This document shows positions 21,343-26,924 of a stretch of 58,681 nt of DNA, piece after piece. The notes under the pieces were generated by a model. It did no database searches. It worked only from the letters and a program-made list of their open reading frames with translations, and was not told the DNA's origin. This DNA comes from a virus, in the IMG/VR virus record IMGVR_UViG_3300025687_000049, positions 1 through 58,681 of that record; one strand, 5' to 3'. The position numbers and the translations under genes were made by a program. How positions within the stretch are numbered: position 1 is the first letter of the stretch; the number at the start of each line of letters is the position of its first letter.

Positions 21343-21380
21343 ATATACCTTTTAGTTATAAGCTTATAACAACACGGTAT

Positions 21381-21408
21381 TAGACATCCTCAACAAAAGG
21401 CGTATAAT
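21381..21408 (+). promoter_or_regulatory. Rightward early sigma-70 promoter
   Basis: TAGACA (21381-21386), 16-base spacer, TATAAT (21403-21408). Nearest good host-type promoter to the early genes; transcription would begin near 21415 and pass through the hairpin-rich leader into the first early gene at 21939. Confidence 0.7.
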
Positions 21409-21414
21409 GATTAC

Positions 21415-21938
21415 ATCAGCTCGGGGATTACACCTCGACTCGGTAAGCACGGTAGGCCTCGCGGTCAGATCCACATAGCCAGAGTAGCAGTTGATCAGGG
21501 TCCCTCGAACGTAGCACAAATCGAGGTCTGGCGAGTAGGTCACCTTAGGATTACAGAGTTTATCCGAAGTGGCACATAGGATGAAAGCCGGGGGTTAAAA
21601 TAATAGCGTGTTGGTAGGTAGAACTACCAGTTGGATATAAGGATACATCCAATTCTGCCGGGCATCGCTGAGCATGTTGTCCCTAGTCTTCACTTAGGAG
21701 CGTAAGCTTCCAGTGTGTGAGGATCCTAGCGATTTAGTGATTCAACGGTGAAGATTCATATCATATCTCTCCAAAAACCTACTGATGACTCGAGAGAGAA
21801 CGGCTAGCAATAGCTGTTGATGCCGTGGTTGGCATCGAAACAAACGCAGCAATGCGGGGATGGAGTGGTTGGGATGCTTTCTAAGTATGCCGATCAGACC
21901 ATCCCAAAATTGTATAGGTAACCATTGAGAATGATATT
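21415..21938 (+). ncRNA. Highly structured 0.5-kb early leader, candidate non-coding RNA
   Basis: No credible gene, but at least seven perfect or near-perfect hairpins: CCTCGA/TCGAGG (21503-21526), TGGTAG/CTACCA (21612-21629), TTGGAT/ATCCAA (21631-21652), a two-part stem at 21687-21723 with a GTAA loop, GATGCC/GGCATC (21819-21836), CGCA/TGCG with a GCAA loop (21845-21856) and TTGGGATG/CATCCCAA (21869-21907). Two loops are of the stable GNRA type. It starts directly after the early promoter. It may be a leader that controls early gene expression or a stable RNA. No tRNA T-loop signature was seen. Confidence 0.5.
21869..21938 (+). promoter_or_regulatory. Hairpin-leader cassette 1 (before 21939)
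   Basis: An 8-bp stem (21869-21876/21900-21907) followed by GTATAGGTAACCATTGAGA and the start region. This copy has three extra bases before the ATG. Confidence 0.6.
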
Positions 21939-22127
21939 ATGACTACACAATTACACACCAAAGTGGATCTATTTGCCGGCACTCAGTACGAGGGCTTGAC
22001 ATACAACCAGATCCGTAGGATGCTTACACCTGCTCAGGTTCGAGTGCTACAGCAATTGAATAAGCGAGGAAAAAAGATCGCATCTCACCAGAATGCAATG
22101 CAACGTGTAATCCAGTCCTATCGGTAG
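21939..22127 (+). CDS. Early small protein (62 aa)
   Basis: First gene of the early operon, starting after leader cassette 1. Sequence is polar and basic toward the end (LNKRGKKIASHQNAMQRVIQSYR) with YNQIRRMLTPAQVRVLQQ in the middle, which could form a helix-turn-helix-like pair. It may be a host-takeover or DNA-binding protein; no family recognised. The stop codon lies in the loop of the next hairpin. Confidence 0.65.
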   Translation: MTTQLHTKVDLFAGTQYEGLTYNQIRRMLTPAQVRVLQQLNKRGKKIASHQNAMQRVIQSYR

Positions 22128-22160
22128 ATAGGTCTGTTTAGGTAAACCAGGAGACTAAAT
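22117..22160 (+). promoter_or_regulatory. Hairpin-leader cassette 2 (before 22161)
   Basis: CCTATC-GGTA-GATAGG hairpin (22117-22132) containing the stop of the previous gene, then GTTTAGGTAAACCAGGAGA and the start. Confidence 0.7.
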
Positions 22161-22412
22161 ATGACTATTAAGACTACTAAAATCGAAGTGAAAAGGTTTG
22201 AAGCCCAGCAAATTTGCAGCGCACTATTTGACCGTGCTCGCCAATCAATTGAGGAAGAAAACTTCCATAATTGCGCTGAAGAGCTCGAGATCGCAGCAAA
22301 ATTTGTCCGGGCAATCAATCCTTCCTATCGCAAGACATACCGAGATGCGATAGATATCATATACTTCCAGAGAGCTTGCAGAATGGAGGATATAGACTAC
22401 GTAGAGCCTTAG
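22161..22412 (+). CDS. Early small protein (83 aa)
   Basis: Helical, amphipathic (RFEAQQICSALFDRARQSIEEEN, ELEIAAKFVRAINPSYRKTYRDAIDIIYFQR in part), reminiscent of a small tetratricopeptide-like hairpin but too short to assign. Starts at the ATG of leader cassette 2. Function unknown. Confidence 0.65.
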   Translation: MTIKTTKIEVKRFEAQQICSALFDRARQSIEEENFHNCAEELEIAAKFVRAINPSYRKTYRDAIDIIYFQRACRMEDIDYVEP

Positions 22413-22444
22413 GGCTCTCGTTTAGGATAACCAAGGAGATATAT
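22403..22444 (+). promoter_or_regulatory. Hairpin-leader cassette 3 (before 22445)
   Basis: AGAGCC-TTAG-GGCTCT hairpin (22403-22418); the TAG stop of the previous gene is in the loop. Leader GTTTAGGATAACCAAGGAGA follows. Confidence 0.7.
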
Positions 22445-22618
22445 ATGAATATTGTACGAGAAACAGAAGCGGATTTTTCACTTGACAGCTTCGAGATTGA
22501 GCATTTACGGGAAAATCTGCCGGTGATCGGCGTATGTGAGCTGACAGACTTCGAAGCCTTTCACTTAGGCTTGATCGATGAAGATCTACTGTTCAGGCTA
22601 CGTACTGAACTCCTCTAG
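22445..22618 (+). CDS. Early small acidic protein (57 aa)
   Basis: Start set by leader cassette 3 (an upstream in-frame ATG has no ribosome site). Acidic: ETEADFSLDSFEIEHL, LTDFEAFHLGLIDEDLL. Small acidic early proteins of lytic phages often bind and block host enzymes; that role is only a guess here. Confidence 0.65.
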   Translation: MNIVRETEADFSLDSFEIEHLRENLPVIGVCELTDFEAFHLGLIDEDLLFRLRTELL

Positions 22619-22652
22619 GGAGTTCGGTTTAGGAATAACCACGGAGATTGAT
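22607..22652 (+). promoter_or_regulatory. Hairpin-leader cassette 4 (before 22653)
   Basis: GAACTCC (22607-22613) pairs with GGAGTTC (22619-22625); the TAG stop of the previous gene is in the loop. Leader GTTTAGGAATAACCACGGAGA follows in two parts. Confidence 0.7.
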
Positions 22653-23153
22653 ATGAAAGAGACACAACAATGGGAACAGCTTCAAGATACCCTTAATGGG
22701 GAGCAGAATTTCTGTATAATCGAGGAGCGAAAAGCGCCGATATTGTATGCGGTACTGCTACAGATCAAAAAGATCGATGGCATACCTGTTACACATCGGA
22801 ATGGGAAGGAAGGTCCCGAGGTTATTGTTGGTAATGGGTACTATGTCCAGAAATACCTGGAACTGCTATCCGATAGACCAAAATATACCAGAGCTGACTT
22901 CCAAGTCCAGATGGGACTTTTACTAGGCTACTCGTTTGAAGATTGTGTGGAGTTTGCAAAGAATCCACCCGATTGTGATTGCGAGAAATGCGGAGGTCCT
23001 AACGATCGCATTGAGCTTGGTCCAGTAGAGTATGAAGGTACAAGACCATACCAAAAGGCCACCTACCAAGGTGCCGCATATGGGACCTTATATCACCCGG
23101 ATCCTGAGCTGATAAAGCACAGTCCAGGGATACAAAATTGGTCAAAACCCTAG
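22653..23153 (+). CDS. Early hypothetical protein with a C-terminal Cys cluster (166 aa)
   Basis: Start set by leader cassette 4. N-terminal half is an alpha/beta mix (CIIEERKAPILYAVLLQIKKIDG). Residues about 100-125 (LLGYSFEDCVEFAKNPPDCDCEKCGG in part) contain four closely spaced Cys that may bind a metal. No family recognised. Confidence 0.65.
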   Translation: MKETQQWEQLQDTLNGEQNFCIIEERKAPILYAVLLQIKKIDGIPVTHRNGKEGPEVIVGNGYYVQKYLELLSDRPKYTRADFQVQMGLLLGYSFEDCVEFAKNPPDCDCEKCGGPNDRIELGPVEYEGTRPYQKATYQGAAYGTLYHPDPELIKHSPGIQNWSKP

Positions 23154-23160
23154 TGTTTTA

Positions 23161-23200
23161 GCCCTCTAACGGGGGCGTTTAGGTAACCAAGGAGATAGAT
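23161..23200 (+). promoter_or_regulatory. Hairpin-leader cassette 5 (before 23201)
   Basis: GCCCTC-TAAC-GGGGGC hairpin (23161-23176, one wobble pair), 7 bases after the previous stop; leader GTTTAGGTAACCAAGGAGA follows. Confidence 0.65.
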
Positions 23201-23809
23201 ATGTACCAGAAAGAAATGCGGAAAATCCAAGCCGGGTTTGCTGCTCAACCAGGTGAGACACTAGAACAAACAGTTAGGTTTGTACTCGCCACCATCCAAC
23301 AACAATTTTCTACTGTGGAGGACATTCTCCATACATGGGCGTTGCAGGGTGAAATGGCTCCCACTATGTGGGGCGCTAAGAGAAAGGGTGTTCGCTATAT
23401 TGAGAAGCATTCCCAGGAATTGGCCGCTAAATTGAAGGGGTGCGACACTGTGGAAGCAGTGGATACACTCTTGACAGTCCCCGGGCTGAACACGGTAAAG
23501 GCAAGCTTTGTTGCCCAGTGTCTCGGCTTTGGTGTTGGGTGTATAGATACCCACAATGCGAGGATCCATGGCGTAAACGTCAAATCCTACGCGGTTACTA
23601 AGAACTTGACAGCGAAGACTAGACTTGCTAAAATCAAGTCTTACATTGCATTATGTCAAGGACTAGGAGGATCCGCGGTGTTGTGGGACTCATGGTGCGA
23701 GCTTATCGCCGATAAGCAGAGCGCACACTTCGATGACGCGGAGGCTGTGAGTGCATACCATTCACACTGCATACTAAAGCATGTAAAACATGATCCTGCC
23801 AGATGGTAG
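23201..23809 (+). CDS. Helix-hairpin-helix (HhH-GPD-like) DNA-glycosylase-type protein (202 aa)
   Basis: Residues about 85-125 read LLTVPGLNTVKASFVAQCLGF then GVGCIDTHNARI. This matches the HhH-GPD layout of endonuclease III-type glycosylases (LPGVGRKTA ... IAVDTHV): a Pro-Gly hairpin, a Lys near the catalytic Lys position, and the Asp of the DTH motif. No iron-sulfur cluster Cys set is seen. It may recognise modified or damaged bases in host or phage DNA. Expressed early from cassette 5. The family link rests on this motif alone. Confidence 0.5.
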   Translation: MYQKEMRKIQAGFAAQPGETLEQTVRFVLATIQQQFSTVEDILHTWALQGEMAPTMWGAKRKGVRYIEKHSQELAAKLKGCDTVEAVDTLLTVPGLNTVKASFVAQCLGFGVGCIDTHNARIHGVNVKSYAVTKNLTAKTRLAKIKSYIALCQGLGGSAVLWDSWCELIADKQSAHFDDAEAVSAYHSHCILKHVKHDPARW

Positions 23810-23838
23810 GATCGTCTAGGATAACCAAGGAGAATGAT
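23792..23838 (+). promoter_or_regulatory. Hairpin-leader cassette 6 (before 23839)
   Basis: Nine-pair stem GATCCTGCC (23792-23800) with GGTAGGATC (23805-23813), loop AGAT; the stop of the previous gene is inside the stem. Leader GTCTAGGATAACCAAGGAGA follows. Confidence 0.75.
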
Positions 23839-24072
23839 ATGAAACTGACCGCAGAAAACCTTCGCAATATGCAAAGCAACCTGTTTACCATCGATGACGA
23901 TCTAGGGGAGACTATCAAACGTATCCCTAATGAATACGCCTATGTGGTGTTCATTGCTGCAAATACTGTCCTCGAGTCCTTAGCCGTGATGGTTGAGGAG
24001 GCAGAAGAGGAAGAGCTGACAGCTTTCGAGCTTCGAGAGCTGGAAGCCCAAGAGAAGGGAGGTGGAGAATGA
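23839..24072 (+). CDS. Early acidic small protein (77 aa)
   Basis: Start set by cassette 6. Helical with a very acidic C-terminal third (VEEAEEEELTAFELRELEAQ). Overlaps the next small gene by 4 bases (ATGA). No family recognised. Confidence 0.65.
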   Translation: MKLTAENLRNMQSNLFTIDDDLGETIKRIPNEYAYVVFIAANTVLESLAVMVEEAEEEELTAFELRELEAQEKGGGE

Positions 24073-24185
24073 GCCACGATGACGACAATGTCCCTTTCTG
24101 GGACGCGGTGTTGATGGTCACTAGTAGTTATGTTAGTGTGATCATTGTTGTGCTGTTTACAGCATGGTTACTAGGGCAGCTTTAA
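24069..24185 (+). CDS. Single-span membrane micro-protein (38 aa)
   Basis: MSHDDDNVPFWDAVLMV followed by a hydrophobic stretch (SVIIVVLFTAWLLG) that would span the inner membrane. GGGAGGTGGAG precedes the ATG, which overlaps the previous stop. The stop codon is in the loop of the next hairpin. Possibly an early inner-membrane exclusion or host-control peptide. Confidence 0.6.
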   Translation: MSHDDDNVPFWDAVLMVTSSYVSVIIVVLFTAWLLGQL

Positions 24186-24218
24186 GCTGTCCGTCTAGGA
24201 ATAAACCAGGAGATTGAT
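24174..24218 (+). promoter_or_regulatory. Hairpin-leader cassette 7 (before 24219)
   Basis: GGGCAGC (24174-24180) pairs with GCTGTCC (24186-24192) around TTTAA, which carries the stop codon. Leader GTCTAGGAATAAACCAGGAG follows. Confidence 0.7.
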
Positions 24219-24503
24219 ATGACCGAAAATGACCAAAGACTGTATGGAACCATAATCGACACCCTCGACGATAACCAGATCCTTGATCTAGTGCTTGTCA
24301 TGGGAGTTATGCCGTGGTATAGTGGTATCCCTCACAGTGTATATGTGAGTCTAAAAGAGTTCCTTGCCGACCAGGGACTAGATACCACCAAGTACGTGGT
24401 GAAAGCCTCTGTAGATTGGGAGGAAGTTGAAGCCGCTCGACCCGAAGATGGTAGTCCATGGGTAACCGTGGAAGCAGCTGATATTAGCGTAGAAGTCGAA
24501 TAG
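24219..24503 (+). CDS. Early acidic protein (94 aa)
   Basis: Acidic alpha/beta small protein (LYGTIIDTLDDNQILDLVLVMG; VDWEEVEAARPEDGSPW). Start set by cassette 7. No family recognised. Confidence 0.65.
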   Translation: MTENDQRLYGTIIDTLDDNQILDLVLVMGVMPWYSGIPHSVYVSLKEFLADQGLDTTKYVVKASVDWEEVEAARPEDGSPWVTVEAADISVEVE

Positions 24504-24510
24504 ACTACAC

Positions 24511-24590
24511 CGCGGAGAATTCCACTCCGTGGGCTACCTACATCCTAAGCATGATGTAAAACTGCTGTATAGATAACCAGGAGAAATGAT
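24511..24590 (+). promoter_or_regulatory. Hairpin-leader cassette 8 (before 24591), two hairpins
   Basis: First stem CGCGGAG/CTCCGTG (24511-24531), second TACATC/GATGTA (24539-24558). Leader GTATAGATAACCAGGAGAA follows. The only cassette besides number 11 with two stems. Confidence 0.6.
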
Positions 24591-25007
24591 ATGACTAAGT
24601 TAACACGCGAATTGATCGAAAAAGAATACGCTAGAATTGAGGAAAAGAAGCGTAATCTCGAGGTCTTCGAGCCTCGTCCGATCCAAGCACAGTACGATGC
24701 TTTGTTCCAAGCCTTATATGACGTGGATCCGAACATCAACATTAAGGCCAATAGTAACGACGGTGAGTTCGATATCCGCTTCGCTGGAGACAGTGGGGTG
24801 TACCGGTGGGTATACTCAACTTTACGTGAGCATGGCTGGGAGCCAGAAGATCGTATCTCCGATGATACGCGGAACTACTTCACTACGTGGTACAGAAAAG
24901 AGGGCCTTCCATCTTTGTATGTAACCTTCTCGAGCACCGTATGCCAGCGTGTCCAGGTAGGAACCCGGACGGTAGAAGAGCCAATCTATGAGCTTGTGTG
25001 TGAGTAG
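24591..25007 (+). CDS. Early hypothetical protein (138 aa)
   Basis: N-terminal charged helix (LIEKEYARIEEKKRNLEVFE) followed by an alpha/beta domain (VDPNINIKANSNDGEFDIRFAGD, YVTFSSTVCQRVQVG). Start set by cassette 8. No family recognised. Confidence 0.65.
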   Translation: MTKLTRELIEKEYARIEEKKRNLEVFEPRPIQAQYDALFQALYDVDPNINIKANSNDGEFDIRFAGDSGVYRWVYSTLREHGWEPEDRISDDTRNYFTTWYRKEGLPSLYVTFSSTVCQRVQVGTRTVEEPIYELVCE

Positions 25008-25012
25008 TTAAC

Positions 25013-25053
25013 CTGGGCTCCGGCCCAGTTTAGGAATAACCAAGGAGAATGAT
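25013..25053 (+). promoter_or_regulatory. Hairpin-leader cassette 9 (before 25054)
   Basis: CTGGGC-TCCG-GCCCAG hairpin (25013-25028) with a UNCG-type tetraloop closed by C-G, an especially stable RNA motif. Leader GTTTAGGAATAACCAAGGAG follows. Confidence 0.75.
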
Positions 25054-25206
25054 ATGGAAAGTAACCAAAACGAAAACCTTTTGTATGCAATTAAGCAGAT
25101 TGCGGCCCAGTTCTCTGGTGAGCGTAGGTTCACTGGGAGCGTAGAGTTCACTGTAGATCTGCGTCTCATAATCAACGCCCAGGACATCGAGGAGGAAAGC
25201 AATTGA
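25054..25206 (+). CDS. Early small protein (50 aa)
   Basis: MESNQNENLLYAIKQIAAQF, then a beta pair (FTGSVEFTVDLRLIINAQD) and an acidic end. Start set by cassette 9. Its stop TGA overlaps the next start (TTGA). Confidence 0.6.
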   Translation: MESNQNENLLYAIKQIAAQFSGERRFTGSVEFTVDLRLIINAQDIEEESN

Positions 25207-25352
25207 GCGATTTTGTAGCAGCCTTTTTTATGATGATCTTTCTGTGTGCAGGCTTGCTAGTCTTATGGCTAGCGAGTATACTGAACTCAGTGACCCTCGT
25301 ATTTATAGGCCTAGCCATCATAGCAATCAGCACAAAAGGAGCTAAGGGATAG
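25203..25352 (+). CDS. Two-span membrane micro-protein, TTG start (49 aa)
   Basis: Begins at TTG 25203 after GAGGAAAG, coupled to the previous stop. Two hydrophobic segments: FVAAFFMMIFLCAGLLVLWL and VTLVFIGLAIIAIS, with a basic end (STKGAKG). A small inner-membrane protein of unknown role. Confidence 0.55.
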   Translation: MSDFVAAFFMMIFLCAGLLVLWLASILNSVTLVFIGLAIIAISTKGAKG

Positions 25353-25391
25353 GGGCGAAAGCCCCCGTCTAGGAATAACCAGGAGATAGAT
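25352..25391 (+). promoter_or_regulatory. Hairpin-leader cassette 10 (before 25392)
   Basis: GGGGC-GAAA-GCCCC hairpin (25352-25365) with a GNRA tetraloop, starting at the previous stop codon. Leader GTCTAGGAATAACCAGGAGA follows. Confidence 0.75.
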
Positions 25392-25571
25392 ATGAAAGAG
25401 CAGTTAACAAATAAAGAGATCGTTAATTGGCTGGTATCAAATGATATTGGCCTGAGCGATGTGATCGACGCAGTGATTGACGTAAATGGGATCATTGGTG
25501 TAGGATTGATAACCCTCGCAGAGGGATTGTCGCAGTATGTCCAGGACCAGATAACACCACAAGGAGATTAA
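25392..25571 (+). CDS. Early small protein (59 aa)
   Basis: MKEQLTNKEIVNWLVSNDIG, LSDVIDAVIDVNGIIGVGL: amphipathic helices with a hydrophobic middle. Start set by cassette 10. Function unknown. Confidence 0.6.
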   Translation: MKEQLTNKEIVNWLVSNDIGLSDVIDAVIDVNGIIGVGLITLAEGLSQYVQDQITPQGD

Positions 25572-25572
25572 G

Positions 25573-25692
25573 ATGGGTGGTCACTTGTATTGGAGCTGTG
25601 CCGTATGGGTTGTACAGTACGGTGGGTTCACACAATATCAGTTGGATGTTGCCACTACGTGGGCACTCCAGATCCTTTCTGAGGAGGCGTAG
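25573..25692 (+). CDS. Early micro-protein (39 aa)
   Basis: ATG at 25573 after AAGGAGATTAAG, one base past the previous stop. Aromatic and polar (HLYWSCAVWVVQYGGFTQYQ). Ends directly at the next ATG. Too short to classify. Confidence 0.5.
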   Translation: MGGHLYWSCAVWVVQYGGFTQYQLDVATTWALQILSEEA

Positions 25693-25881
25693 ATGAAGAC
25701 GCTACTGGTAGTGCTGTGTGCGTTTAATACGCACTGTGAGCACGAGTGGGAAGCGGTGTATGCCGCGGATAACTTAAGGGAGTGCAGAGCACAAGGGAAG
25801 GCTCAATTCCCTGAATACGAGCGCCTATGGCTCTGCGTGAAAGATATTCAAGTTAAAGATGAATGGAGCGAGTTCGAATGA
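25693..25881 (+). CDS. Early small protein with Cys pairs (62 aa)
   Basis: MKTLLVVLCAFNTHCEHEWE then a charged helix and LWLCVKDIQVKDEW. The hydrophobic N-terminus could be a short membrane or export segment. GAGGAGGCGTAG precedes the ATG. Overlaps the next gene by 4 bases. Confidence 0.55.
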   Translation: MKTLLVVLCAFNTHCEHEWEAVYAADNLRECRAQGKAQFPEYERLWLCVKDIQVKDEWSEFE

Positions 25882-26072
25882 ATGATATAGTACACATCAC
25901 ACAGATGATATCCCTATGTGGGCAACGATTGGACCGTATCCAATCAGACGAGCAGCGGGTACGGATCCTACAGGAGCTGGATGACCTTCTCTTCGAAGCA
26001 GAAGGGTATCTCAAGGATGAACTTTACCACTACGAGGAGACCATCGACGGTCAGCACGGCTCACCTTTCTAG
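25878..26072 (+). CDS. Early small helical protein (64 aa)
   Basis: ATG 25878 overlaps the previous stop (ATGA). Helical and acidic: RLDRIQSDEQRVRILQELDDLL, EGYLKDELYHYEE. Last gene before the sigma factor. No family recognised. Confidence 0.55.
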   Translation: MNDIVHITQMISLCGQRLDRIQSDEQRVRILQELDDLLFEAEGYLKDELYHYEETIDGQHGSPF

Positions 26073-26134
26073 GTACCCATATAGGGAACCTTCGTACCCG
26101 AAAAGGGTACGTCTAGATAACCTTGGAGAATGAT
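26072..26134 (+). promoter_or_regulatory. Hairpin-leader cassette 11 (before the sigma-factor gene)
   Basis: An imperfect stem GGTACCC/GGGAACC (26072-26090, one mismatch) and a 7-bp stem CGTACCC/GGGTACG (26093-26111) with loop GAAAA. Leader GTCTAGATAACCTTGGAGAA sets the ATG at 26135. Confidence 0.7.
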
Positions 26135-26824
26135 ATGACAGAACTGAGTAGTTTTCAGCTCTACAGCATTGACCTAGATGCCGCGGAGATTGAACACAAG
26201 ACCAAACACCAGCTCGCCGGCTTACATGCTGAAGCCTTGAAGGGAAACCAGAAGGCGTGGCATGATCTTTGGTTGTACGGGACCAAACTGGTCCTGAAGA
26301 TATGCAACAAGCTCTCGTCTATGGACTTACTCCGTTGTGAGTACGAAGAGGCTGTAGCTGAGGGGAATGCTGCGATCGGAGAGGCACTGACCCGGTGGAA
26401 CCCTAAGAAGTCCAGCTTCGGTACCTGGGTATGGATCCGGGTTCGAGGTGCAATCCTCGATGAGTCGAAGAAGTGGTCTCCTGAACCAGGTGTAGTCCCT
26501 GCCGAGGTGACTCTATCAGATGACCAGGAGCATGGTGATGACGAGTACAACAATTCTCTCTATGATCTGGCTGACGAGGAATATCTGGGTGAAGATCCTG
26601 CTCTGGATCTCGATAAAGCCCGGTTGAGAAGAGTCCTTCCAGCACTACCTGAGAGGGAGTTGAAGTACGTAACCCTGTACTACTTTGAGGACCAGACTCT
26701 CAATGAGATAGCCGATCTGGAGGGTATTAGCCGGAATATGGTACACAAGATTCTTAAGCGAGCTGAGGCTCGTTTAGGTGAATTGTTATTGGGGGGGTTA
26801 ACAATCTCCGCGTTCGAGCGATAA
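26135..26824 (+). CDS. RNA polymerase sigma-70-family factor
   Basis: 229 residues. Region 2-like segment at about 75-115: EGNAAIGEALTRWNPKKSS, FGTWVWIRVRGAILDESKK, which carries the promoter-melting aromatic/basic surface of FliA/SigB-type factors. An acidic linker follows. Region 4 at about 160-220: LPERELKYVTLYYFEDQTL then EIADLEGISRNMVHKILKRA, a helix-turn-helix for the -35 element. Region 1.1 is absent, as in alternative sigma factors. It would redirect host core RNA polymerase. A copy of the repeated promoter overlaps its own stop codon. Confidence 0.88.
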   Translation: MTELSSFQLYSIDLDAAEIEHKTKHQLAGLHAEALKGNQKAWHDLWLYGTKLVLKICNKLSSMDLLRCEYEEAVAEGNAAIGEALTRWNPKKSSFGTWVWIRVRGAILDESKKWSPEPGVVPAEVTLSDDQEHGDDEYNNSLYDLADEEYLGEDPALDLDKARLRRVLPALPERELKYVTLYYFEDQTLNEIADLEGISRNMVHKILKRAEARLGELLLGGLTISAFER

Positions 26825-26825
26825 T
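26798..26825 (+). promoter_or_regulatory. Rightward phage-sigma-type promoter (copy 2 of 3)
   Basis: GGGG then TTAACA (26798-26803), 16-base spacer, GATAAT (26820-26825) followed by AGTAATATTAG. The same extended blocks and spacing occur at 30461-30488 and, reversed, at 20802-20829. It would drive primase, helicase and downstream genes. Confidence 0.75.
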
Positions 26826-26864
26826 AGTAATATTAGTATTAGTATAAGTGTAATTAGTAGTTTA

Positions 26865-26924
26865 GGGATGCCCCAAAGCATCCCATAATTATAAGTAATT
26901 ACATAAAGTTTAGGAGATATAGAT
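26865..26924 (+). promoter_or_regulatory. Hairpin-leader cassette 12, shortened (before 26925)
   Basis: GGGATGC/GCATCCC hairpin (26865-26884), then TTTAGGAGATATAG and ATG. It lacks the AATAACC part of the leader. It follows the phage-sigma-type promoter. Confidence 0.6.

What the first reader, a model, noticed from the sequence alone, without database searches (positions are those of the whole stretch)
21869..26924. Array of hairpin-leader cassettes before early genes
Twelve early genes are preceded by a hairpin (sequence different each time, pairing kept, often with the previous stop codon in the loop or stem, some with GNRA or UNCG loops), then a conserved leader GTYTAGG-AATAACC, then AAGGAGA and a GATATG start. 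Conserved structure with changing sequence implies selection on the RNA fold. Possible roles: RNase processing sites that create separate mRNAs with protected ends, intercistronic attenuators, or a shared translation switch recognised through the invariant leader.
Basis: seen in the sequence. Interest (0 to 1): 0.85.

Follow-up and report, generated by a model that had tools for sequence, protein, structure and literature searches.

The report
Phage early genes separated by hairpins
In an uncultured virus of bacteria, nearly every early gene is set off from the one before it by a small RNA hairpin followed by the same short ribosome-landing sequence, an unusually uniform form of gene punctuation whose exact job is not yet known.

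Summary
In a 5-kb early region of a sigma-factor-encoding tailed phage, 12 gene starts carry a leader (GTYTAGG-(A)(A)-TAACC-(A)AGGAGA-...-ATG) found nowhere else in the window. All nine sites with the full GTYTAG leader have a hairpin directly abutting it, 24-26 nt before the start codon; the two GTATAG variants and one truncated leader have a hairpin further upstream. Chance gives such a hairpin at about 6.6% of positions (P about 4e-9). All 11 non-overlapping gene boundaries have a hairpin; the overlapping or abutting boundaries inside modules do not. Hairpin sequences are unrelated (28% identity), and departures from Watson-Crick pairing are G-U rather than A-C, so the selected object is the plus-strand RNA. 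There is no U-tract, so these are not intrinsic terminators. The stems are too short and simple for typical RNase III sites. I read them as intercistronic punctuation: the hairpin ends one module and insulates the next ribosome-binding site. The closest published analogue is the SAS/ESAS of cluster K mycobacteriophages, where RNA hairpins are not supported; here they are. No relative with the array was found, so cross-species covariation and any trans-acting factor remain untested.

The parts
21381..21408 (+). Probable early promoter (TAGACA-16-TATAAT) heading the array
   Evidence: 11 of 12 consensus match; hexamers conserved in relative L023
21409..21868 (+). Structured non-coding 5' region before the array
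   Evidence: No plus-strand gene called here; folding z-score -3.86 for 21409-21938; its first ~85 nt conserved in L023
21869..21907 (+). Hairpin before g1: TTGGGATG...CATCCCAA, long loop, 4 nt before the leader
   Evidence: Read from sequence; loop too long to count as abutting
21912..21938 (+). Leader g1, variant GTATAGGTAACCATTGAGA
22117..22132 (+). Hairpin CCTATC(GGTA)GATAGG; g1 stop codon inside
22136..22160 (+). Leader g2 GTTTAGGTAAACCAGGAGA
22403..22418 (+). Hairpin AGAGCC(TTAG)GGCTCT; g2 stop codon in loop
22420..22444 (+). Leader g3 GTTTAGGATAACCAAGGAGA
22604..22628 (+). Hairpin ACTGAACTCCT(CTA)GGGAGTTCGGT; g3 stop codon inside
22627..22652 (+). Leader g4 GTTTAGGAATAACCACGGAGA
23161..23176 (+). 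Hairpin GCCCTC(TAAC)GGGGGC
23177..23200 (+). Leader g5 GTTTAGGTAACCAAGGAGA
23790..23815 (+). Hairpin ATGATCCTGCC(AGAT)GGTAGGATCGT; g5 stop codon in 3' arm
   Evidence: z -5.2 against shuffles
23814..23838 (+). Leader g6 GTCTAGGATAACCAAGGAGA
24174..24192 (+). Hairpin GGGCAGCT(TTA)AGCTGTCC; g7 stop codon inside
24193..24218 (+). Leader g8 GTCTAGGAATAAACCAGGAGA
24510..24532 (+). Hairpin CCGCGGAG(AATTCCA)CTCCGTGG after g8 stop, not abutting a leader
24539..24558 (+). Hairpin TACATC(CTAAGCAT)GATGTA, 8 nt before the g9 leader
24567..24590 (+). Leader g9, variant GTATAGATAACCAGGAGA
25013..25028 (+). Hairpin CTGGGC(TCCG)GCCCAG, UNCG loop closed by C-G
25028..25053 (+). Leader g10 GTTTAGGAATAACCAAGGAGA
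25352..25365 (+). Hairpin GGGGC(GAAA)GCCCC, GNRA loop; g11 stop codon at its 5' foot
25367..25391 (+). Leader g12 GTCTAGGAATAACCAGGAGA
26093..26111 (+). Hairpin CGTACCC(GAAAA)GGGTACG
   Evidence: z -3.6 against shuffles
26111..26134 (+). Leader g16 GTCTAGATAACCTTGGAGA, before the sigma factor gene
26135..26824 (+). g16, sigma-70-like factor (regions 2 and 4)
   Evidence: PF04545 7e-10 and PF04542 5e-6; phrog_351 3e-16
26865..26884 (+). Hairpin GGGATGC(CCCAAA)GCATCCC after the sigma gene, about 24 nt before the g17 leader
26908..26924 (+). Truncated leader g17 GTTTAGGAGATATAGAT

Best explanation
The cassettes are intercistronic punctuation in one long early mRNA. Each module runs: standard leader with strong Shine-Dalgarno, one to four tightly coupled ORFs, then a 3' hairpin. 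At the RNA level the hairpin closes the upstream module, often around its stop codon. It keeps the upstream coding RNA from pairing with the next leader, so that a ribosome can load about 25 nt downstream independently of the preceding gene. Shown: position, restriction to non-overlapping boundaries, plus-strand RNA bias, and slightly greater predicted leader accessibility. Inferred: that insulation (and perhaps 3' end protection) is the selected function, and that the GTYTAGG part of the leader is read by something other than 16S rRNA.
For: 9/9 abutting hairpins (P). 11/11 non-overlapping boundaries in the array have a hairpin, mean score 9.1 against 5.4 at coupled boundaries and in the rest of the genome. 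Wobbles are G-U, not A-C: summed stem score 84 against 63. Leader-to-start distance is 24-26 nt in all nine full cassettes plus g9. The native upstream segment leaves the leader more unpaired than shuffled ones (0.61 against 0.55, P 0.004). Leaders are conserved while flanks on both sides are not (0.77 against 0.28 and 0.32), and the genes are not paralogues.
Against: The accessibility gain is small, and for the Shine-Dalgarno alone it is not significant (P 0.08). Leader conservation beyond AAGGAGA is not explained by 16S pairing. No expression data, and no relative with the array to test conservation.
Confidence: 0.45

Rival explanations
1. RNA processing sites: an endonuclease (host RNase E/G or a phage enzyme) cuts in the single-stranded leader just 3' of the hairpin, leaving each upstream mRNA with a protective 3' hairpin and each downstream mRNA with its own 5' leader.
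For: A hairpin followed at once by a conserved single-stranded segment; stable C-G-closed tetraloops. T4 RegB cuts GGAG in early intergenic regions (PMC3014915), and intergenic CUUCGG hairpins occur in many phages (PMC8948821).
Against: Stems of 5-11 bp without internal loops are poor RNase III substrates (from general knowledge). No RegB-like match in the window, though that search had no positive control, and no RNase III-like match, with controls ringing. No conserved RNase E-like cleavage motif was shown.
Confidence: 0.25
2. A shared translation or decay switch: a phage or host protein or RNA recognises GUYUAGG...UAACC beside the hairpin and turns the whole early set on or off.
For: The leader is conserved beyond the ribosome-binding site and limited to early genes.
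Against: No strong antisense partner in the window outside the leaders' own complements (best + strand duplex -18.6 kcal/mol against -34.9 for the leader complement). The 0-2 nt length variation inside the leader is awkward for a rigid binding site. No regulator identified.
Confidence: 0.15
3. Recombination boundaries: leaders are short homologies through which early genes are shuffled as modules, like the promoter-stem-loop cassettes (PeSLs) of T4-type phages.
For: Unrelated orphan genes share only the leader; the hairpin lies with the upstream gene and the leader with the downstream one.
Against: Pure shuffling does not require hairpins or explain G-U-containing stems; no relatives with rearranged order were found.
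Confidence: 0.1
4. Each leader is a promoter (phage single-subunit RNA polymerase or sigma-dependent).
For: TTTAGGTAACC resembles the SP6-type promoter core (from memory); ESAS of phage Adephagia contain putative SigA-like promoters (PMC11373665).
Against: No PF00940 RNA polymerase in the window while the same search finds it in Vibrio phage 1.204.O; length varies by 0-2 nt inside the motif; sigma-70-like sites in the region are not above chance.
Confidence: 0.03
5. Intrinsic terminators or attenuators.
For: Stable stems at or just after stop codons.
Against: Only 2-4 T in the first 8 nt of the leader; terminator-like sites 13 found against 12.4 expected.
Confidence: 0.02

Closest known systems
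Start-Associated Sequences and Extended SAS (SAS/ESAS) of cluster K mycobacteriophages and cluster EF Microbacterium phages
   Same: 10-19 copies of a conserved asymmetric motif including the Shine-Dalgarno just upstream of start codons of non-structural genes, about half (cluster K) with an inverted repeat directly upstream; motif conserved beyond 16S pairing (PMC3203893, PMC7302621)
   Different: Different motif. ESAS inverted repeats share a consensus and their changes do not support RNA pairing; here stems are unrelated in sequence, always paired at full leaders, and G-U tolerant. ESAS contain putative promoters in Adephagia; no promoter signal here
Stable intercistronic hairpins of T4 (CUUCGG) and the GTTCGG hairpin before the sigma gene of phage 7-11
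   Same: Short stable tetraloop hairpins between phage genes, in 7-11 before a sigma gene (PMC8948821)
   Different: No conserved leader at every site is described for those; here every non-overlapping boundary of the array is marked
Two-part hairpins before early genes of Vibrio phages 1.204.O and 526E57-1 (resembling T7-type RNase III sites)
   Same: Hairpins about 26-33 nt before several early starts, with compensatory changes between the two phages
   Different: Longer helices with internal loops, present at some boundaries only, no uniform leader; these phages encode an RNA polymerase
PeSL promoter-stem-loop cassettes of T4-type phages
   Same: Repeated regulatory cassettes with a stem-loop between small early genes
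   Different: Contain an early promoter; none seen here. The PeSL papers are not held; known from citing text and memory

Membership tests
SAS/ESAS (cluster K) | Consensus GGGATAGGAGCCC at start codons | tested here: not met
   Leader is GTYTAGG-(AA)TAACC-AAGGAGA
SAS/ESAS (cluster K) | Conserved motif overlapping the ribosome-binding site of a subset of non-structural genes | tested here: met
   12 sites, early region only
SAS/ESAS (cluster K) | Upstream inverted repeats with a shared sequence consensus | tested here: not met
   Upstream identity 28% against 25% expected
Intrinsic terminator | G+C-rich hairpin followed by U-tract | tested here: not met
   Hairpin yes, U-tract no
RNase III processing site (T7 type) | Long, often internally looped helix | tested here: not met
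   5-11 bp simple stems; contrast with Vibrio phages
RNase III processing site (T7 type) | Cleavage in vivo | not testable with these tools
   Needs RNA end mapping
Phage single-subunit RNA polymerase promoter | Cognate polymerase gene in the phage | tested here: not met
   PF00940 absent from the window, positive control in 1.204.O; the record may be incomplete
PeSL | Early promoter joined to the stem-loop | tested here: not met
   Promoter-like sites at chance level
T4 RegB target | GGAG in early translation initiation regions, with a RegB gene | tested here: inconclusive
   GGAG present at most leaders; no RegB match, but no positive control for that search

The most novel reading that the evidence does not exclude
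The hairpin plus GUYUAGG...UAACC leader is a recognition site for a dedicated early-phase factor, a phage or host RNA-binding protein, nuclease or small RNA, that acts on all twelve early cistrons at once: an early-mRNA regulon defined by RNA shape plus a short invariant tag.
Probability: 0.18. Interest if true: 0.75.

Novelty: new variant of a known kind. Interest (0 to 1): 0.5.

Why it matters
Repeated start-associated motifs have been reported in phages since 2011 without a known role, and the mycobacteriophage cases show no RNA pairing signal. This array gives a cleaner case: the pairing is recurrent and statistically strong, and hairpins coincide with non-overlapping boundaries. The question of whether phages use RNA punctuation to make early genes independently translatable, or to mark them for joint control, could be tested with small reporter constructs.

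Tried and rejected
Relatives: the sigma factor, helicase and polymerase gave none with the array in IMG/VR. Portal relatives down to about 40% identity either stop before the early region or lack the motif. L023 ends about 85 nt after the array promoter. Distant blastn against phages gave nothing better than E about 6. One gapped pattern scan returned an error. Rfam: no match. A CCTAAG resemblance in Vibrio phage 1.204.O proved to be the 3' side of a longer helix, not a homologous leader. Integron attC analogy considered and rejected: no paired R boxes seen flanking the stems. No covariance model was built because the stems are not homologous and MAFFT misaligns them.

Full report
What the window is. 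The record is an IMG/VR virus contig of 58,681 bases. Late genes run on the minus strand: terminase, portal and major capsid protein. A plus-strand block carries primase, DnaB-like helicase, family A DNA polymerase and 5'-3' exonuclease. The polymerase is nearest to Stenotrophomonas phage StenR_269 and the VpV262 group, and the portal is distantly related to HMO-2011-type marine phages. At 21.4-27.2 kb lies a run of about 17 small, mostly orphan genes that includes a sigma-70-like factor as its sixteenth gene. A near-consensus promoter (21381-21408) precedes it and is conserved in relative L023. 'Early' is inferred from this layout.

The leaders. Twelve starts carry the leader, all on the plus strand and only in this region. 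The distance from the leader's first G to the start codon is 24-26 nt at ten sites, despite 0-2 extra A between TAGG and TAACC. The flanks show no visible common ancestry: mean identity is 28% in the 22 nt before the leader, 77% in the last part of the leader, and 32% after the start codon; the proteins are not paralogues.

The hairpins. For each position I took the best uninterrupted stem (G-U allowed, loop 3-8) whose 3' end lies within 5 nt before to 1 nt after the leader G. All nine full GTYTAG leaders score 7.5 or more, and none of the three variant leaders does. The same score is reached at 6.6% of positions elsewhere in the region and 3.8% in the whole window, giving binomial P of about 4e-9, or 5e-7 at a laxer cut. 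The score threshold was chosen after seeing the data, hence the range. Simple folding of 40 nt is less striking (mean z -1.9; P 0.001 against random windows), partly because shuffling keeps the G+C content of the stems.

Direction and level. Allowing G-U rather than A-C as the non-Watson-Crick pair raises the summed stem score from 63 to 84. A DNA-level cruciform or protein site would not prefer G-U on one strand, so the plus-strand RNA is the likely selected form. The number of such pairs is small (about six against one).

Boundaries. Every boundary with a gap of 20 nt or more in the array has a hairpin (11/11; 26% expected in coding sequence at a similar search width, P 5e-7). Boundaries within modules (g6/g7, g10/g11, g12-g15) do not have one that belongs to the junction; the one high score there lies inside the next gene. 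[quoted passage not shown] So the hairpin belongs physically to the upstream gene's end and the leader to the downstream gene's start. A stop-to-start gap of 29-34 nt in those five is close to the sum of a terminating and an initiating ribosome's footprints (general knowledge; an inference).

Mechanism. Replacing the upstream 40 nt by shuffles lowers predicted leader accessibility (0.61 to 0.55, P 0.004), the Shine-Dalgarno alone not significantly. This agrees with insulation but does not prove it. Terminators are disfavoured by the missing U-tract. A phage-polymerase promoter is unlikely: no such polymerase gene was found, with a positive control, and the motif length varies. RNase III is unlikely on stem length. 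Single-strand cleavage in the leader and recognition by a factor remain open.

Known relatives in kind. The best published parallel is SAS/ESAS of cluster K mycobacteriophages, where the authors found little support for RNA hairpins and later work places putative promoters in ESAS. T4-type CUUCGG hairpins and the hairpin before the sigma gene of phage 7-11 are parallels for the stem alone. Two Vibrio phages that share a homologue of g4 have longer, internally looped hairpins before some early genes, with compensatory changes between the two phages; this shows that pairing before early genes can be under selection, but the elements are not the same.

Limits. All functional steps are inferred.

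Noticed in passing
window 21409-21938: About 460-530 nt without a called gene, folding much better than shuffles (-182.8 against -154.7 kcal/mol, z -3.86); its first ~85 nt and the promoter are conserved in L023. Possibly a non-coding RNA or long structured 5' leader.
   Followed up: partly
window 21355-21370: Palindrome GTTATAAGCTTATAAC just upstream of the early promoter, nearly unchanged in L023; possible operator.
   Followed up: no
window 23834-23841, 24586-24593, 26130-26137: AATGATATGA at several leaders gives an out-of-frame ATG-ATA-TGA whose stop overlaps the real start codon.
   Followed up: no
L025 1567-6725: Stenotrophomonas phage StenR_269 has its own intergenic repeat GTTTAACGTTAAAC, about five copies, some close to starts.
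   Followed up: no
L151 2954-3022 and 6053-6119; L236 7578-7638 and 10484-10543: Vibrio phages 1.204.O and 526E57-1 have two-part hairpins before early genes with compensatory base changes between them, resembling T7-type RNase III sites.
   Followed up: partly
L014 3300-5900: A portal relative (50% identity) has a dense cluster of tRNA-like repeats beside its structural genes; no tRNA was found in the window.
   Followed up: no
window 23201-23809: g5 has homologues of unknown function in roseophages, Paracoccus and Microcystis phages.
   Followed up: no
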